DNA of 64,000 nucleotides, taken from positions 62,001-126,000 of the forward strand of contig WRFH01000003.1 in assembly GCA_009778915.1 (NCBI GenBank). The letters run 5' to 3'. This document shows, piece by piece, positions 6,519 through 35,821 of this stretch (positions within the stretch are counted from its first letter, which is position 1; every line of letters begins with the position of its first letter). Below the pieces are notes generated by a model, which did not search any database, was not told the origin of the DNA, and was given only the letters and a program-made list of their open reading frames with translations. Both the position numbers and the translations under genes were made by a program. The stretch comes from Elusimicrobiota bacterium (GTDB lineage: Bacteria > Elusimicrobiota > Elusimicrobia > Elusimicrobiales > Elusimicrobiaceae).

Positions 6519-9500
6519 TTAGAACTTCCACGCCGCGCCGGCTCTTAAGCCGTAATCGTTACCGCGGTTTGTTTTGAAAACGGCCTTGGCCCATACGCTG
6601 AATCTCCGCGAGAAGATTTTTGAAACTCCCGCGCCGTATTCCAGATAATTTTGTTCTGTCTCAAGCGCTGGCAACTCAATATCGCCCGCTTTGCCGGAAA
6701 CTCTGCCGCCCATATTGAACATATAACTGCCGCTCAGAAGAAAATTCCACGTCCTCAGCCCGTATATCAGATTCATTCCGGGCGCGACGTTAAAACCGTT
6801 CATATAATCCGTCTGCATCGCTATATTCCCGTAGGATGAATCCCAATTCTGCTGTCCGTAAATATTATAAGAAGCAAGCACGCCCGGCTGGATTACAAAA
6901 TTATCAAGATACATATTGTAAGCGCTTTTAACGGCAACGCCGGCGAACCAGTTATTAAGAGAATCGTTGTAGCCCGCTAAACTTATCCTGTTATTATATC
7001 CGCCGCCGTAAATCATACCGGACGTGGTAAAATCGTCTTTCATCAGAGACGCCATAAAACCCAGCTGCAAAGCGTCCTGCATCGTATCCACATTGTCAAA
7101 CGACTGCTGCGCGCCGTTATAACCCGCGTATAAAGTCGGCATAAAATACGCGTCGCTGCCGATATCGCTGGTAGGGAAATCAATGCCCATAAGATAGCCG
7201 TACATATCATTTTTAATATCTAAACCGTTGCCGAGCGGCACGGAGCCGTTTTCGTAATAAGTTTTTGCCCAGAGATTTTTACTTCTGTTTTCTTTGAGAA
7301 ACTGCGACGGGATAAAGCGGTAACCGCATTTATCGTCGTCCATAAGCATAACGTTGCTGTCAAAAAACACGTGGTCGAACAAAGTATCGTTGGCAAGCAA
7401 TTGGGAGTTCAGCATAGACCTGACGGCAGCCTGCCCGTCGCCGGTGGAAGGGGCAAGCGATTGCAGACTTAGCATATACCACCCCTGCTGCGCCATAGGC
7501 GCAAAACCGTAAGTGCCCAGCGGCGTCTGCACCTGCGTAACATTGGACGCAAAAGTTATGCCGCTTATTGTGCCGCCCGCGCTGAAAACCTGCAAAGGTA
7601 TTTGCCGGACAGCCGGCGCGTTCAGCAGATTTATATTGCTTATGTTTATAGTCCCTGGGTCAATATTTAAGGCAAAGTTAAATGAGTCCGAAATTTTATT
7701 TTTAGCGTCAATATCAATCGCGAAATTGGCGCTTGAACCGCCGACGGTCAGGCCGCCGGCAAAGTTATTTGAATTGATGACTCCGTCCATCGCGTTGATG
7801 GTTGAGTTGCTGTTCATATACAAATTGCCGCCGTTATTCATCAGATTAAGCGCGACGCCGTTGGTATTTATGCGCGCGCTGCTGGCTGAGTCGCCCAGCG
7901 TAATATCGCCGCCGGTAATTACGGAATTGCCGCCCAGCGTCAGAACGGAATTATTTATAAGTGTCAGTTCGCCGCCGCTTTGCGAATAATTGCTGTTATA
8001 GAGGTTCTGCAAGCCGTCCATCGTAGTATTGCCCGCGCTCATGCTGACGCTGCCCAGCCACGTGTCCTGCGTGCCGAGATATAACTGCGCGCCGGGCGCC
8101 TCAACGCTTATTGCCGAATCTGAATCCAGAAAAATTGTATTGCTGCCGTCAACAGAGTCAGCGTTATTATTAAGAGCCAGCGTTGAGCCTTGGGAAATCC
8201 ACAACAGGCTGTTGGTAACGTTTAAAGAAGACAGCGCGCCGTCTTTCTGGGCCGTATCCACGCCGGTATTAACCCAGAAAAGAGTGCCGCCGGTAATTGT
8301 GTTTGTGCCGTTGAACAAATTTGTTCCCACATATAATGTACCGGCGTCCTGGGTATAAGTTCCGTTAAAGATGTTATTTTTGTTGGAGCCTAAGAGGTAA
8401 ACCGAGCCTTCGCCGGTTTTTTCAATCGCGCCCGTGCCCGAAATACCGTCCGCGAACAAAACGGCAAAATTGCCGCCGAACGCTATCGTGCCTCCGTCGT
8501 TATAAATATCGTTTGCGCCGGTGCTGTCTGAATTTGAAACAAAAGTCGAGTCGCCGGAGTTAGAATTAAAAGTCAAAGTAACGCCCGGGCCGTTGTATAT
8601 AGCCCCGCCCAAGCCGCCGTTGGCAGCGTTTACCGCGCCGGCGGTAAAACTTGCGTTGTTTTCCACAAATATCATATTGCCGTAAAGGGTGAGGCCGTCC
8701 GCGTTATTATAAATCGCGCCGCCGTTGTTGTATGCCGTATTATAGGCAAACACGCTGCCCGAAACCGGGGCCGATATATCCATTGTGCCGCCGATATGGC
8801 TTATGGCGCCGCCGTTGCCGATATTTACGCCGGTTCCGTTGGTAACGTCCGCGCTGTTGCTGTAAAACTGTTGTATATCCTGTATCGTTACGGTCCCGCC
8901 GTTTTGGTTAATGGCTCCGCCGTTGCCGTTAGCGGCGCGGTTGGAGGAAAAACCAACAAGTTCATAATCCGTAGAACTAAGCGGCGTCGTGGGGTTGGAG
9001 CTGGCAATGCCCGCTGTTCCGCCGTCCACGTTAATAGCTCCGCCGTTGCCGCCGGCCGCGGTGTCAGTACAGTTGCCGGTCGCGGGATCGCACAACTGGC
9101 CGGAGGAGTTGCCGGTAAAACTTGTCAGAACAGTGTTTAAATTTCCGGCTTCAATATTAAACGCGCCGCCGTTGTTTTCCGCGTAGCTGTTAAATATATG
9201 CGTATACCTGAAATCCGCCGTGGAACCCGTGTCATTCATTTCCAGCACCGCGCCGCTGTTAGCTGTCCAGGCGTCGCGCACGGACATATCGTGCATGCTG
9301 AAATCAACTGTTCCGCCGGCAAGAGCTGTTGTGTCAATATCGAACAGCGAGCGTCTGTCCAGAACCGCGCCCGGCCCTGGGTTCGGATTTGCGCTGAAGT
9401 CACCGCTCAGTACCGACGACAAATCGTCCGGGATAGAACCGTATACGTTGAAAGTCCCAGCGGCCATGGTTTGAAAGCCGTTTGCCGTATTGGGGTCGTC

Positions 9501-12107
9501 TTCAGGGGTTGTATAATAATTCCAATAATAGGTACCCGCGTCTATCTGCCAGTTTCTGGCAGAGGACGTAGTCATGCCGTAATCCCCGGCGGTAGTCGTA
9601 AGAGCGTTCGCGTCGTTTAAGTCAAGCGGCGGCAGCGTCGCGGTAACCGGGTTAAAAATAATACCGTGCGCATCAGAGGTAAGCCCTAAGGTATAAACGT
9701 TTCTGCTGGTAACAATAAAAGTGTTTGGATTGTCAAGCGTAAGCGTTAAGTCCGCGGAACCAGCCTGAGGGTAAATAATCTGCACCGGGCCGGAAAGCGT
9801 CCCGAAATCATAAATATATAATTTGCTAAGGTTTATTTGCTGCCCGCTGCCCGGGGCGAGATTTACTGACAGCGAATCGGCGATAAAATTTGTGTCGGTA
9901 GGAGCGGCGTTAGTGCCCGCGCCGACTACTTTTACATACAGCTGCGATAAATTGGTTGTGTCCGTATAAAAGCTGTTAAACGTGAACTGGTTTACCGTCG
10001 CTTTTATGGCCGGCATAGTCGTAATATCATTAAGGTTCACGTTCGACGGCAGATTGGAGTAAGCCAGAAAAAGAGCCGAACTGTCCGTAAAACTGTACGT
10101 CGTGCCGCCTGTGAAATTTGTTACCGGATTTCCGTTATTATCTATGAAAACGACGAGCATGTTATCAAAATTAATCGTGTTTTGCTGCCCGTTGCTGATA
10201 TCCGCCGACAGGTGCAAATCCGCAATAGTGCCGCTTCCGTTGTAAAAATTAACCGTGGAACCGCTGCCCATAAAATTCAGTCCCGGCGCGCCGACGCCAG
10301 AGGAAGGCGCAAGCGTGAATATAGACGAAGTCGTTACCGTATGGTTCAGCAGCGTGTTGGAAAACATATTGGCGTTATAATAAAAAGAGCTGTTGGAAGC
10401 AAAAACATTGACAATACTGTCACCGAAGGCCCCGACGGTAGTAATATCCCCGCTTGCGGCGTTTGGGGCGTTATATATATTGTTTACGCCGCCGAACATC
10501 TGGCCGAACATATCCGTCTCCCCGTAAAATTGATTAAATATGCCGGTGAAATTAGAACTGTTTGAAGAAGCCGCGAAACAAAGCGAACCCGGCGAACACG
10601 GAGCCGGCGTTATAATAATTGACTGCGCCGTTCCGCCTGAGCCGTATTTGTTTACCGTGCCGGCCCCCTGTATGCCGCCGTCGAGAGAAATAACACCGTC
10701 TGTAAAGAAATTGATAACGCCGTTTTGGGTTTGGAAAATATCATTAGGAGTAAGATTAGGGCTGCCGGGTATCGCAATGGTGTTGCCGGTAAACGTTATT
10801 CCCGTCCCGGCGGAATTAAAGTTGACTACGCCCCAGCCGTCGTTATAAACCGCGCCGCCGGACATCGCGGCGTTGTTTATAAACTGCGTGCCGTCGGCAA
10901 TATTAAGCTGGGGAATTGTGGAGTATGCGTTAGAATAGTTTTGCGCGTAGTTATAAATAGCGCCGCCGTTGCCGTCCGCCGCGCTGTTGCCTGAAAAGAC
11001 AACGTTAATTCCCAGGTTTGTCGCGCCCGCCTCTCCGCCGGCATTTATATAATTGTAAATCGCGCCGCCGCTGCCGTTTAAGGCGATATTATTATTAAAA
11101 GAAGAGACGCCCGTCAAATCAAAAATATTGGAGCCGCCGTAAGGTGCGTTGCCGCTCAGGCCGACATAATTTGCAACCGCGCCGCCGTTCTGCATAGCGA
11201 CGTTGCCGGTAAAAGAACCCGCAAGCGTAAAATTGTCAACGCCGTTGCCGCCTTCAACCTGATTTACAACAGCGCCGCCGTAAGAGGCATTGTTGCCATT
11301 AAAGACGCCGTACACGTCAAACGCGTTTATGCCGCCGCCGGACGGATTATTTACAAAATTATAAATTGCGCCGCCGTAGCCTGTCGGCGCGCTGTTGTTT
11401 GTAAACGGCATCAGTACGCCGGACGAGCCTATAACAAAACTATTATTCAAACTTGAGCCGCTGCCGTAATTGGAAACATTGTAAACAGCGCCGCCGCTGC
11501 CGCTTACCGCAGAATTTGCGGTAAAGTAGCATATCAAAGGATTAGAACAGGTTATAGAAAATTCAACGGGAAGCTGGGAATTGTTGGAAGCATTATACAA
11601 AGCGCCGCCGTTTGCGGCCGTGTTATAGGTAAAAATATTATCGGTAAAAGTATAAGTTCTTGTACTGCCGGCTACCTGCGCCTGCGCATGGCTGTAAACC
11701 GCGCCGCCGTTGTTAGGGGATGTATTACCGGTAAAAGTTGAATTCGTTATTATATAGGTATGGTTATTCTGTCCGTCGCCGTTAAATTCAACCGCGCCGT
11801 TTACAGCGCCGTTGATGGTTATATTTTGTATCGTCGCGTTAAGACCGTCATTCCAGTTAGGCAAAAATATGAGTGTGTTGTTATTAAGCGTAAGAGTGTA
11901 GCCCAAACCGTCAATGGTAAGGTCCGCCGAACGCGGTACGCCGAGAGTATCAGTTAAATTTATATCCTGCTGCAAATTTATCAGCGGGATATTTGTGTTT
12001 ATCCAATGCTCATAAAAAGCCTGAGAACTCCCCGCCCCCGCCGCGTTTAAAATGCCCGCGCAAAAAATACAAACGGCAACTGCATAAATCAGACAATATT
12101 TTTTCAT
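6519..12107 (-). CDS. giant autotransporter adhesin with Pmp-like GGAI/FxxN beta-helix repeats
   Basis: 1862-residue type V-secreted surface protein. It has a signal peptide (about residues 1-26). The beta-helix passenger carries at least fifteen GGA-[IVFL] turns, nine between about residues 135 and 425 and six between about 980 and 1170, many preceded by FxxN (FTGN, FSGN). GGAI plus FxxN is the hallmark of Chlamydia polymorphic membrane proteins. The middle and late passenger is richer in Asn, Ser and Thr beta-strand repeats. The last roughly 270 residues form an autotransporter barrel with alternating aromatic strands, ending AGAAWKF with a terminal aromatic. A GGGGGA ribosome site precedes ATG 12107. 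An AT-rich promoter region with TATAAT lies upstream. Adhesion is inferred from the architecture. Confidence 0.92.
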   Translation of the reverse strand: MKKYCLIYAVAVCIFCAGILNAAGAGSSQAFYEHWINTNIPLINLQQDINLTDTLGVPRSADLTIDGLGYTLTLNNNTLIFLPNWNDGLNATIQNITINGAVNGAVEFNGDGQNNHTYIITNSTFTGNTSPNNGGAVYSHAQAQVAGSTRTYTFTDNIFTYNTAANGGALYNASNNSQLPVEFSITCSNPLICYFTANSAVSGSGGAVYNVSNYGSGSSLNNSFVIGSSGVLMPFTNNSAPTGYGGAIYNFVNNPSGGGINAFDVYGVFNGNNASYGGAVVNQVEGGNGVDNFTLAGSFTGNVAMQNGGAVANYVGLSGNAPYGGSNIFDLTGVSSFNNNIALNGSGGAIYNYINAGGEAGATNLGINVVFSGNSAADGNGGAIYNYAQNYSNAYSTIPQLNIADGTQFINNAAMSGGAVYNDGWGVVNFNSAGTGITFTGNTIAIPGSPNLTPNDIFQTQNGVINFFTDGVISLDGGIQGAGTVNKYGSGGTAQSIIITPAPCSPGSLCFAASSNSSNFTGIFNQFYGETDMFGQMFGGVNNIYNAPNAASGDITTVGAFGDSIVNVFASNSSFYYNANMFSNTLLNHTVTTSSIFTLAPSSGVGAPGLNFMGSGSTVNFYNGSGTIADLHLSADISNGQQNTINFDNMLVVFIDNNGNPVTNFTGGTTYSFTDSSALFLAYSNLPSNVNLNDITTMPAIKATVNQFTFNSFYTDTTNLSQLYVKVVGAGTNAAPTDTNFIADSLSVNLAPGSGQQINLSKLYIYDFGTLSGPVQIIYPQAGSADLTLTLDNPNTFIVTSRNVYTLGLTSDAHGIIFNPVTATLPPLDLNDANALTTTAGDYGMTTSSARNWQIDAGTYYWNYYTTPEDDPNTANGFQTMAAGTFNVYGSIPDDLSSVLSGDFSANPNPGPGAVLDRRSLFDIDTTALAGGTVDFSMHDMSVRDAWTANSGAVLEMNDTGSTADFRYTHIFNSYAENNGGAFNIEAGNLNTVLTSFTGNSSGQLCDPATGNCTDTAAGGNGGAINVDGGTAGIASSNPTTPLSSTDYELVGFSSNRAANGNGGAINQNGGTVTIQDIQQFYSNSADVTNGTGVNIGNGGAISHIGGTMDISAPVSGSVFAYNTAYNNGGAIYNNADGLTLYGNMIFVENNASFTAGAVNAANGGLGGAIYNGPGVTLTFNSNSGDSTFVSNSDSTGANDIYNDGGTIAFGGNFAVLFADGISGTGAIEKTGEGSVYLLGSNKNNIFNGTYTQDAGTLYVGTNLFNGTNTITGGTLFWVNTGVDTAQKDGALSSLNVTNSLLWISQGSTLALNNNADSVDGSNTIFLDSDSAISVEAPGAQLYLGTQDTWLGSVSMSAGNTTMDGLQNLYNSNYSQSGGELTLINNSVLTLGGNSVITGGDITLGDSASSARINTNGVALNLMNNGGNLYMNSNSTINAMDGVINSNNFAGGLTVGGSSANFAIDIDAKNKISDSFNFALNIDPGTINISNINLLNAPAVRQIPLQVFSAGGTISGITFASNVTQVQTPLGTYGFAPMAQQGWYMLSLQSLAPSTGDGQAAVRSMLNSQLLANDTLFDHVFFDSNVMLMDDDKCGYRFIPSQFLKENRSKNLWAKTYYENGSVPLGNGLDIKNDMYGYLMGIDFPTSDIGSDAYFMPTLYAGYNGAQQSFDNVDTMQDALQLGFMASLMKDDFTTSGMIYGGGYNNRISLAGYNDSLNNWFAGVAVKSAYNMYLDNFVIQPGVLASYNIYGQQNWDSSYGNIAMQTDYMNGFNVAPGMNLIYGLRTWNFLLSGSYMFNMGGRVSGKAGDIELPALETEQNYLEYGAGVSKIFSRRFSVWAKAVFKTNRGNDYGLRAGAAWKF

Positions 12108-12296
12108 ATCCCCCCTTATATAACCCTTTTTATATAATTATTATAACCTATATTTATGTATTTATATAATACTATAATTAATTATATTTAGATAAGACTA
12201 TTTATAGTCCACGGGCAGAATATACTGGCGAGGGAGTTGCCCCGGGGAAAAATATTTTCGCGCAAAACTACGGAATAGGAAAAGCCGGGTGCAACG
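12108..12296. promoter_or_regulatory. AT-rich upstream region of the autotransporter gene
   Basis: Non-coding stretch between the autotransporter start and the palindrome beside tRNA-Ser. The part nearest the gene is almost pure A/T and on the minus strand contains TATAAT about 45 bases before the start codon, a plausible -10 element. A short inverted repeat, GACTAT-TT-ATAGTC, lies at 12196-12209. No coding sequence is credible here. Confidence 0.5.
12196..12209. repeat. short inverted repeat upstream of the autotransporter gene
   Basis: GACTAT and ATAGTC flank a two-base centre about 90 bases before the start codon at 12107. Related AAGAC(C)TAT half-sites occur upstream of three other secreted-protein genes in this window (near 50284-50330, 51073 and 54713-54796), so it may be an operator. 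The role is inferred. Confidence 0.4.
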
Positions 12297-12360
12297 CCGC
12301 CATATGAACCGCGGGACTAAACGAAAATACTTCCGTTTAGTCCCGCGGTTCATATGGCGG
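12297..12360. repeat. 64-bp near-perfect palindrome overlapping the 3' end of tRNA-Ser
   Basis: The 27-base arms at 12297-12323 and 12334-12360 are exact reverse complements. The central ten bases pair too, apart from two A-C mismatches, so there is essentially no loop. The right arm contains the last two acceptor bases, the discriminator and the CCA of tRNA-Ser. No T-run follows on either strand, which argues against a simple terminator. It could be a duplicated tRNA end left by an integration event, a protein-binding site or a 3'-trailer hairpin. Confidence 0.85.
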
Positions 12361-12443
12361 AGAGGGAGGGATTCGAACCCTCGATACCTTTTGGGTATAC
12401 AGTCTTTCCAGGACTGCGCCTTAAACCGCTCGGCCACCTCTCC
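12355..12443 (-). tRNA. tRNA-Ser (anticodon GGA)
   Basis: Read on the minus strand. The acceptor stem GGAGAGG pairs with CCTCTCC. The D arm contains GCCGAGCGGTTTAAGGC. The anticodon stem CAGTC/GACTG encloses the loop CTGGAAA, giving anticodon GGA. A long variable arm (TATACCC...GGTAT) is typical of serine tRNAs, and the T arm contains GGTTCGAATCC. The discriminator G and CCA are encoded (12358-12355). The 5' end abuts a T-run of a hairpin (12444-12472), and the 3' end lies inside the 64-bp palindrome. Confidence 0.95.
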
Positions 12444-12482: not shown

Positions 12483-13076
12483 TTATAACAAATCTTTAAA
12501 ACCGCTGGAAAAGAAGCCCGGGTCCCGCTCGCGCACGGAAATATTTTTAAAACCGGCGGTTTTGTAAAGCTCGTAAATTTTTTCGCCTGGCGGCAGCAAA
12601 TCTTTTTTAGTGGCGTCCCGTTTGCCGTGGGCGCGGTTAAGTTCTTCGCGCGTTAAAGAATGCGCGACGATAAAAACGCCTCCCGGTTTCAGCGCGGCGT
12701 GGGCGTTATAAAAAACGCTTTCAAAGTCCGTAAAATGCGGGAAAACGTTATACGCGACGGCCTTATCAAAATAATTCCGCGGCAAAACCGCCGTCTCAAA
12801 ATCAGCGGCCAGCGTCTGCGCGTCCGGGAATTTTTTATTAAGCTCTTCCAGCATTTTGGAAGATATGTCGATATGCAGAATTTCCTGCGGGTTATAGGAC
12901 AGCAAAAAAGGCCGCAGCACGCCGGTGCCGCAGCCGATGTCCAGCACAAAATCGTCGGGCCGTATATTTATTTTACGCACAATCTGCTCCAGCAAACCAA
13001 AAGCGCCCGGAGACTCTTTGGAATCCCAGGCGCCGGCGCTGTCGTCAAAAAAAGAAATTAACTGTTTTTTGTCCAT
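12483..13076 (-). CDS. class I SAM-dependent methyltransferase
   Basis: 197-residue Rossmann-fold methyltransferase. Motif I is VLDIGCGTGVLRPFL near residue 40, followed by an acidic beta-2 end (HIDISSKML), a DFETAVLP segment and the motif IV-like FDKAVAYNVFPHF, then LKPGGVFIVAHSL. The substrate is unknown; the fold resembles UbiE/small-molecule methyltransferases. The start codon overlaps the 3' end of the upstream membrane-protein gene by 19 bases, so translation is probably coupled. The stop codon overlaps a TATAAT box that may serve tRNA-Ser. Confidence 0.85.
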   Translation of the reverse strand: MDKKQLISFFDDSAGAWDSKESPGAFGLLEQIVRKINIRPDDFVLDIGCGTGVLRPFLLSYNPQEILHIDISSKMLEELNKKFPDAQTLAADFETAVLPRNYFDKAVAYNVFPHFTDFESVFYNAHAALKPGGVFIVAHSLTREELNRAHGKRDATKKDLLPPGEKIYELYKTAGFKNISVRERDPGFFSSGFKDLL

Positions 13077-35623: not shown

Positions 35624-35821
35624 AAGGTCGTAAAATGCTTCTAACCTGCCGCGCACAAAGTAATTTTTGGAAAATTTTAATTTTCTTTGCGACGAGCATA
35701 GCCGACAGGCGGAGCCTATGTAAGGAGCAAAAAAATTAAAATTTTCCAAAAATTACAAAGCCCGAAGGGTTTGCCGGTTCTTTGGCAAACGCGCGGCAGG
35801 TTAGAAGCATTTTATGACCTT
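35624..35821. repeat. 198-bp large imperfect inverted repeat after tRNA-Leu
   Basis: Outer 31-base arms at 35624-35654 and 35791-35821 pair with one G-T wobble. Inner 25-base arms at 35660-35684 and 35732-35756 pair exactly, and the pairing continues inward with TTTGC/GCAAA and CATAG/CTATG. Two small hairpins (GCC-GACA-GGC at the tip; TTTGCC/GGCAAA at 35770-35789) decorate it. It holds no gene. It could be a non-autonomous mobile palindrome, or a folded RNA read from tRNA-Leu up to the terminator at 35857. Confidence 0.85.

What the first reader, a model, noticed from the sequence alone, without database searches (positions are those of the whole stretch)
12297..12360. 64-bp loopless palindrome that absorbs the 3' end of tRNA-Ser
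The 27-base arms are perfect and the centre has only two A-C mismatches. The right arm includes the tRNA acceptor end and CCA, so the left arm is an inverted copy of the tRNA end and its trailer. Terminators do not look like this. Options are an inverted duplication at an integration site, a recombinase or nucleoid protein site, or a 3' processing signal. Such palindromes are normally unstable, so retention suggests a use.
Basis: partly seen in the sequence, partly recalled or inferred. Interest (0 to 1): 0.52.

Follow-up and report, generated by a model that had tools for sequence, protein, structure and literature searches.

The report
Foldback palindrome at a tRNA's end
A serine tRNA gene of a gut Elusimicrobium is followed by a near-perfect 64-base palindrome that mirrors the gene's own 3' end, one of a recurring set of such mirrored tRNA ends in this bacterial family that mostly sit beside small non-coding hairpin elements.

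Summary
In detail: 12297-12360 is a loopless palindrome, 30 of 32 pairs matched, and 6 of its bases belong to tRNA-Ser(GGA) (CCA, discriminator, two acceptor bases). It is far beyond chance. It is not an isolated oddity. In five Elusimicrobiaceae genomes, 10 of 205 tRNA genes end in such an absorbing palindrome, against none in mirrored and shuffled controls. Seven of the 10 stand beside one of two non-coding hairpin element families (called B and T here). An orthologous pair, tRNA-Arg(CCG), shows an ordinary terminator in one genome. In the other genome the same terminator is followed by an exact inverted copy of the tRNA end. The window's copy has no recognisable B, T or C element and no significant direct repeat. 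It is absent from the orthologous, syntenic tRNA of the nearest relative, so it is lineage-specific. Best explanation: copy-back (template-switch) synthesis from the tRNA trailer hairpin, tolerated because this family appears to lack the palindrome-cutting SbcCD nuclease. Origin as the head of a lost tRNA-end element is the close rival. An RNA role is possible but untested; an assembly artefact is unlikely. Most striking in passing: the T element, found in 50 of 60 family genomes, carries both inverted and direct copies of its host tRNA's 3' end.

The parts
12297..12360 (-). 64-bp loopless palindrome (27-bp perfect arms, centre with two A-C oppositions)
12355..12443 (-). tRNA-Ser(GGA) gene with encoded CCA
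12355..12360 (-). tRNA bases inside the palindrome: CCA (12355-12357), discriminator G73 (12358), last two acceptor bases (12359-12360)
   Evidence: and reading of the sequence
12334..12354 (-). tRNA trailer, proximal arm of the palindrome
12297..12323 (-). distal arm: inverted copy of trailer plus the 6-nt tRNA end
12236..12295 (-). second, weaker hairpin after the palindrome (stem GTTGC-CCCGG / CCGGGGCAAC); fold z about -2.0; no match to B, T or C models
12483..13076 (-). gene upstream of the tRNA (methyltransferase-like by its motif, recalled); the region upstream of the tRNA is 87% identical over 583 bp to the orthologous locus of G001, where the trailer is different

Best explanation
The palindrome is a tRNA-end foldback: the trailer hairpin of tRNA-Ser(GGA) whose far side was rewritten as an inverted copy of the trailer and of the last 6 bases of the tRNA. 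Shown: the structure; that the same kind of structure recurs at other tRNA 3' ends in this family, mostly beside small non-coding hairpin elements; that it is lineage-specific at this tRNA; that at tRNA-Arg(CCG) an ordinary terminator in one genome matches an absorbing palindrome in another; and that the paired arms of the orthologous Phe palindromes changed in step. Inferred: the copy was made by copy-back (template-switch) DNA synthesis, in which a strand folded at the trailer hairpin primes on itself and copies the adjacent tRNA end. The same process would keep arms perfect, and the palindrome persists because the family lacks SbcCD. In RNA it would form a helix of about 28 bp stacked on the acceptor stem that could mark the transcript's end, but this is not shown.
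For: Recurrence: 10 of 205 tRNAs in five genomes, 0 in the mirrored 5'-end control and 0 in the shuffled-downstream control. Before/after pair: G000 tRNA-Arg(CCG) has an abutting terminator. G001 has the homologous terminator followed by GCCCCGTA, the inverted tRNA end, giving a 26-bp perfect palindrome reaching 9 nt into the tRNA; upstream DNA is 83% identical over 146 bp. Phe: B-bearing orthologues share outer arms but have different inner stems, each perfectly paired (27 and 28 bp). Gln(TTG): orthologous loci (upstream 87% identical over 701 bp), both with B, but the inverted tRNA copy is 10 nt and perfect in G000 and degraded in G001. A similar palindrome at C1:330294 absorbs a protein gene's stop codon around a canonical terminator, next to a B end, so a tRNA is not required. 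SbcD over cut-off in 0 of 12 family genomes; 8 of 14 control genomes were over it. Template switching is known to create and repair perfect hairpins (PMC8794818, abstract and outline seen).
Against: No relative keeps a homologous trailer at this tRNA, so the event cannot be reconstructed here. 7 of 10 absorbing palindromes adjoin B or T elements (Fisher p about 4e-4), which suggests that element insertion, not plain replication slippage, makes them. The window palindrome has no terminator core, unlike most others. SbcD absence rests on one family model; the window genome is only 66% complete, and three family members have weak partial hits.
Confidence: 0.45

Rival explanations
1. The palindrome is the head left behind by a tRNA-3'-end-targeting non-coding element (B- or T-like) that has since been lost or decayed; the inverted tRNA copy was made by the element's insertion.
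For: 7 of 10 absorbing palindromes adjoin B or T; of the other three, the G001 Gly(GCC) one is bounded by a 16-nt direct repeat of the tRNA end and the G002 Glu(CTC) one is followed by what looks like a decayed T (by eye). The same tRNA-Ser(GGA) bears T or C in 11 of 30 relatives. A filled site in G001 against an apparently empty one in G000 at tRNA-Ala(CGC).
Against: No T, B or C match downstream of the window palindrome. The apparent direct repeat CTCCCTCGCC is not significant (112 of 1000 shuffles). Resemblance to the Ser(CGA) palindrome with its B element is not significant either (arm 125 of 2000, following sequence 1943 of 2000).
Confidence: 0.33
2. A selected RNA device: the 28-bp trailer stem stacked on the acceptor stem ends transcription or directs 3' processing, for example by RNase III.
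For: Strong fold that keeps the cloverleaf; both central oppositions are G-U on the tRNA-sense strand; no other intrinsic terminator within 110 nt of this tRNA, whereas 20 of 33 G000 tRNAs have one.
Against: No U-tract after the stem, so not an intrinsic terminator. In most other cases the inverted tRNA copy lies beyond the terminator's T-tract and would not be transcribed. Not conserved at the orthologous tRNA in G001 or G002.
Confidence: 0.13
3. Foldback assembly or amplification artefact.
For: Draft genome, 66% complete; palindromes are classic chimera products (recalled).
Against: It lies inside a 160,905-base contig. Absorbing palindromes with different sequences occur at several tRNAs of two separate genomes, and a palindrome at the Phe tRNA is present in both. 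A weaker case is in a one-contig genome (G002 Glu(CTC)).
Confidence: 0.03
4. A binding or crossover site for a site-specific recombinase or nucleoid protein.
For: tRNA 3' ends are common integrase targets (recalled); a palindrome can be a dimeric site.
Against: Arm sequences differ between tRNAs, and no arm compared resembles the window arm beyond chance. The arm occurs nowhere else in the genome. No significant direct repeat at the window.
Confidence: 0.04

Closest known systems
Template-switch (quasipalindrome) mutations that create perfect hairpins (PMC8794818, abstract and outline seen; PMC7202029, listing seen)
   Same: A reverse-complement copy of neighbouring sequence gives a perfect stem in one event; arms change together.
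   Different: Here the copies cluster at tRNA 3' ends, run into the mature tRNA, and mostly adjoin repeated elements.
REP/BIME/REPIN palindromes and RAYT transposases (PMC8266576, PMC3116915, listings seen)
   Same: Short non-coding extragenic hairpins.
   Different: Arm sequence is host-derived and different at every site; single copy for the window; no Y1 transposase found in the window genome.
Prokaryotic MITEs and small mobile sequences (PMC10969869, PMC2229807, listings seen)
   Same: The adjoining B and C elements are short, non-coding, almost all inverted repeat.
   Different: The window palindrome is single copy with no target duplication; the T element carries tRNA-end copies in both orientations.
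Intrinsic transcription terminators of tRNA genes
   Same: Hairpin directly after the tRNA; most other absorbing palindromes have a terminator as core.
   Different: No U-tract; stem of 27 bp; reaches into the tRNA.
Elements integrated at tRNA 3' ends by tyrosine integrases (recalled)
   Same: The T element often doubles about 17 nt of the tRNA 3' end.
   Different: T is about 200 bp, apparently non-coding, and fits itself to many different tRNAs; the window copy has no such repeat.

Membership tests
Intrinsic terminator | G+C-rich stem followed at once by a U-tract | tested here: not met
   none for tRNA-Ser(GGA); sequence after the stem is CGTTGCACCC
MITE / dispersed repeat | Several copies in the genome | tested here: not met
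   palindrome and following bases only at this locus, in the own genome and among the 60 genomes searched
MITE / dispersed repeat | Target-site duplication | tested here: not met
   best direct match to the tRNA end reached by 112 of 1000 shuffles
B element (this report) | Match to the B profile next to the palindrome | tested here: not met
   no B hit near 12200-12360
T element (this report) | CTGC-loop hairpin, inverted T-arm copy, GTTTTTG core, direct tRNA-end copy | tested here: not met
   no T hit near the locus; no significant direct copy
tRNA-end-absorbing palindrome (this report) | Palindrome with net pairing score at least 12, reaching at least 2 nt into the mature tRNA | tested here: met
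   score 27, starts 3 nt before the end of N73, plus the encoded CCA
Template-switch hairpin | Distal arm is a reverse-complement copy of the proximal arm | tested here: met
Template-switch hairpin | Ancestral state without the copy can be reconstructed | tested here: inconclusive
   no homologous trailer in relatives; compatible pair only at tRNA-Arg(CCG)
REP with RAYT | Y1 (RAYT) transposase in the genome | tested here: inconclusive
   none in G000 (66% complete), one each in G001 and G002
Integrase attachment site | Excision or circular product | not testable with these tools
   needs reads or PCR

The most novel reading that the evidence does not exclude
Elusimicrobiaceae carry a previously undescribed kind of mobile or copying non-coding element that settles at tRNA 3' ends and, at each settlement, copies the host tRNA's 3' end both inverted (making the absorbing palindrome) and direct (replacing or doubling the tRNA end), perhaps by self-primed copying from the tRNA trailer hairpin. 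The window palindrome is a solo product of that copying machinery.
Probability: 0.3. Interest if true: 0.78.

Novelty: new variant of a known kind. Interest (0 to 1): 0.52.

Why it matters
tRNA 3' ends are known as integration targets for large elements. Here they are the seat of repeated small inverted copies that run into the tRNA itself, with pairs of related genomes showing what look like before and after states. This offers a natural system for testing how perfect hairpins arise and stay perfect, and how palindromes survive without SbcCD. The T element would be a compact, family-wide element whose ends are made from host tRNA sequence.

Tried and rejected
Homology of the window palindrome to the tRNA-Ser(CGA) palindrome and its B element looked likely by eye and in a blast alignment dominated by the tRNA; it failed against shuffles. 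A direct repeat of the tRNA end after the second hairpin looked likely by eye; not significant. Profile searches with T, B and C models found nothing at the locus. These profiles were built from loci seen here; the C alignment includes one wrongly cut row, L080. Rfam found only tRNAs above its gathering scores, in the window and in 15 element loci; permissive searches of two long T forms gave, apart from the tRNAs, only sub-threshold matches. A Y1 transposase as mover: none in the window genome, patchy in relatives. A trailer-tRNA misfold relieved by the distal arm: the energy difference is only about 1.7 kcal/mol, not pursued. Retroviral-type priming from the tRNA was considered for T; its inverted copy runs past position 58, so the usual stop (recalled) does not fit; not pursued.

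Dropped rows: the survey left out tRNAs with under 70 nt downstream. That removed one G000 row (a His at a contig end) and one G001 row, tRNA-Arg(CCT) in L139, which does have a 26-bp absorbing palindrome at a contig end. tRNAs with under 100 nt upstream could not score in the 5' control. Searches use different thresholds, so their counts differ (G001: 10 of 42 by the looser rule, 6 of 41 by the stricter). G011 was included in the tRNA search but not surveyed. In one search some T labels come from an element of the next tRNA within 400 nt (for example Phe in L008), and some B labels fall on C-type elements (for example Lys, Ser(GCT)), since the two profiles overlap. A first Fisher test used 38 element-bearing tRNAs; corrected to 39. 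Some relatives counted had contributed rows to the T or C profile. In one search several of the 34 T cores came from loci fetched because of their tRNA.

Full report
WHAT IS THERE. The window lies in a 1.27-Mb, 66%-complete draft genome. G002 is a one-contig genome of 1,643,562 bases that I take from memory to be Elusimicrobium minutum. tRNA-Ser(GGA) lies at 12355-12443 on the minus strand, so only 6 nt of tRNA (two acceptor bases, G73, CCA) are inside. The expected number of such arms in 64 kb is about 7e-11. As RNA, tRNA and palindrome fold together without loss of the cloverleaf.

IS IT ALONE? In 460 kb of this genome (396 kb of one contig plus the window) only three hairpins have a short spacer and at least 24 matched pairs. 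Two are at tRNA 3' ends (Ser(GGA), Phe). The third, C1:330294-330366, is a canonical A-tract/T-tract terminator whose arms extend to absorb the stop codon of a protein gene, and it is followed by the end of a repeat element. Other long-stem hairpins with 30-80-nt loops look like dispersed, MITE-like families.

SURVEY OF tRNA ENDS. I surveyed tRNA genes in five genomes of the family for palindromes with a net pairing score of at least 12 that reach at least 2 nt into the mature tRNA. Counts: G000 3 of 33 (Gln(TTG), Ser(CGA), Ser(GGA)); G001 6 of 41; G002 1 of 42; G008 0 of 45; G009 0 of 44; in all 10 of 205. The mirrored 5'-end control and the shuffled-downstream control gave 0. A looser rule gave 3 of 34, 10 of 42 and 2 of 42 for the first three genomes. 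The arms are different from tRNA to tRNA and each mirrors its own tRNA.

WHAT STANDS BESIDE THEM. Two non-coding element families adjoin most of these palindromes. B (about 135-200 bp, nearly all inverted repeat, core CACACACCGTGTCCGCGCGG) occurs in G000 downstream of tRNA-Gln, Ser(CGA), Leu(CAG), Phe and Arg(TCG). It was matched in 3 of 120 genomes searched: G000 itself, G001, and a weak hit in G008. T (about 200 bp) was matched in 50 of 60 family genomes, sometimes in tandem. Of 34 T cores collected, 33 lie within 500 nt downstream of a tRNA on the same strand (some loci had been fetched because of their tRNA). T carries an inverted copy of the host tRNA's 3' end, split by a CTGC-loop hairpin, then a conserved core, then often a direct copy of the tRNA end of about 17 nt. 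On 28 aligned cores, 15 of 29 predicted pairs show changes on both sides. Seven of the 10 absorbing palindromes adjoin B or T by profile, with 39 such tRNAs among 205 (Fisher p about 4e-4; the B profile also picks up some C elements). Of the other three, G001 Gly(GCC) has a 16-nt direct tRNA-end repeat, G002 Glu(CTC) is followed by what looks like a decayed T (by eye), and the window's has nothing recognisable. T alone is not enough: G009 has T beside 14 tRNAs and no absorbing palindrome by this rule, only abutting ones.

BEFORE AND AFTER. tRNA-Arg(CCG): G000 has an ordinary abutting terminator. G001 has the homologous terminator followed directly by the inverted tRNA end, making a 26-bp perfect palindrome and leading into T; upstream DNA is 83% identical over 146 bp. 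tRNA-Ala(CGC): G000 has CCA plus a terminator. G001 has a tRNA end without CCA, a palindrome, T, and then a CCA plus terminator resembling that of G000 further on (downstream DNA alignable). tRNA-Phe: both genomes have B and a palindrome. The outer arms are alike, the inner stems different, and both are perfectly paired. tRNA-Gln(TTG): both have B, but the inverted tRNA copy is perfect in G000 and degraded in G001. So arms change in step, and the mirrored tRNA end differs between orthologous, element-bearing sites.

THE WINDOW'S OWN SITE. The locus is orthologous to that of G001 (583 bp upstream 87% identical), yet the trailers share nothing clear: G001 has another hairpin-forming sequence straight after the tRNA, and G002 has an ordinary terminator. 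The palindrome and the following bases have no match elsewhere in the genome or in the other 59 genomes searched. In 11 of 30 relatives the same tRNA is followed by a T or C element, so this tRNA end is a repeatedly used site. Tests for a hidden element here were negative: no profile hit, direct repeat not significant, resemblance to the Ser(CGA) locus not significant. There is no U-tract and no other terminator within 110 nt.

HOW IT MOST LIKELY WORKS. I favour copy-back synthesis: a strand folded at the trailer hairpin primes on itself and copies trailer and tRNA end, yielding an inverted copy whose reach into the tRNA varies (2 to 10 nt into the mature tRNA). Template switching is described as both making and repairing perfect stems (PMC8794818, abstract and outline read). 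Palindromes are normally attacked by SbcCD (recalled; PMC4245961 and PMC3315005, starts of abstracts seen in the listing). SbcD was over cut-off in 0 of 12 family genomes and 1 of 20 genomes in all; 8 of 14 control genomes were over it, though three family members had weak partial hits. Whether the copying is spontaneous, or is done by whatever moves B and T, cannot be told from this locus; I give the two readings 0.45 and 0.33.

LITERATURE. Searches for Elusimicrobium repeats, small mobile sequences, tRNA-linked repeats and palindromes showed no title or abstract start describing palindromes or small elements of this kind at tRNA 3' ends. Only one paper was opened (PMC8794818); all others were seen as listings. 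Subscription papers are mostly not held, so absence in print is not shown.

VERDICT. Real, not unique, lineage-specific, and best seen as one of a recurring family of mirrored tRNA ends; the wider phenomenon is more interesting than this copy.

Noticed in passing
L096:1501-1760, L126, L128, L045, L063 and others: T element: about 200-bp non-coding element directly downstream of many different tRNA genes, with inverted and often direct copies of the host tRNA 3' end and a covarying core; in 50 of 60 family genomes, sometimes tandem.
   Followed up: partly
L190:1154-1640 and L200:1160-1600: Longer T forms (about 440-490 bp) with an insert closed by a GGTTGGCAAG/CTTGCCAACC stem and several hairpins; longest stop-free stretch 78 aa in L190 and 147 aa in L200; no Rfam match above threshold except the tRNA.
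   Followed up: partly
L033:1632-1850 (G000:C2:132154-132372) and copies: B element: 135-200-bp inverted-repeat element found in G000 and G001, next to tRNA genes, with stems that differ between copies but stay paired.
   Followed up: partly
L007:1572-1715, L005, L080, L082, L084; L051, L052, L056 in relatives: C element: another hairpin element, after tRNA-Lys and tRNA-Ser(GCT) in the window genome and also away from tRNAs.
   Followed up: partly
window 35660-35756: 28-nt-arm inverted repeat 50 bp downstream of tRNA-Leu(GAG); its arm (GTAATTTT..GAAAATTTTAATTTT) recurs at C1:97160, 229273 and 350162, not directly at tRNAs.
   Followed up: no
L159 (G000:C1:330294-330366): 34-bp perfect terminator palindrome absorbing the stop codon of a protein gene, followed by a truncated B end.
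   Followed up: partly
L037 and L138 (G001 tRNA-Ser(GGA) and tRNA-Ser(CGA) trailers): Both trailers begin with the same hairpin sequence TCGTCTTCGCTTCGCTACGACG...GAAGCGAAGACG; a Y1 transposase gene lies about 2 kb from the second.
   Followed up: no
window 6519-12107 minus strand: 1862-aa repeat-rich ORF with a C-terminal region that reads like an autotransporter barrel (recalled, not tested); it starts about 250 bp past the tRNA end.
   Followed up: no
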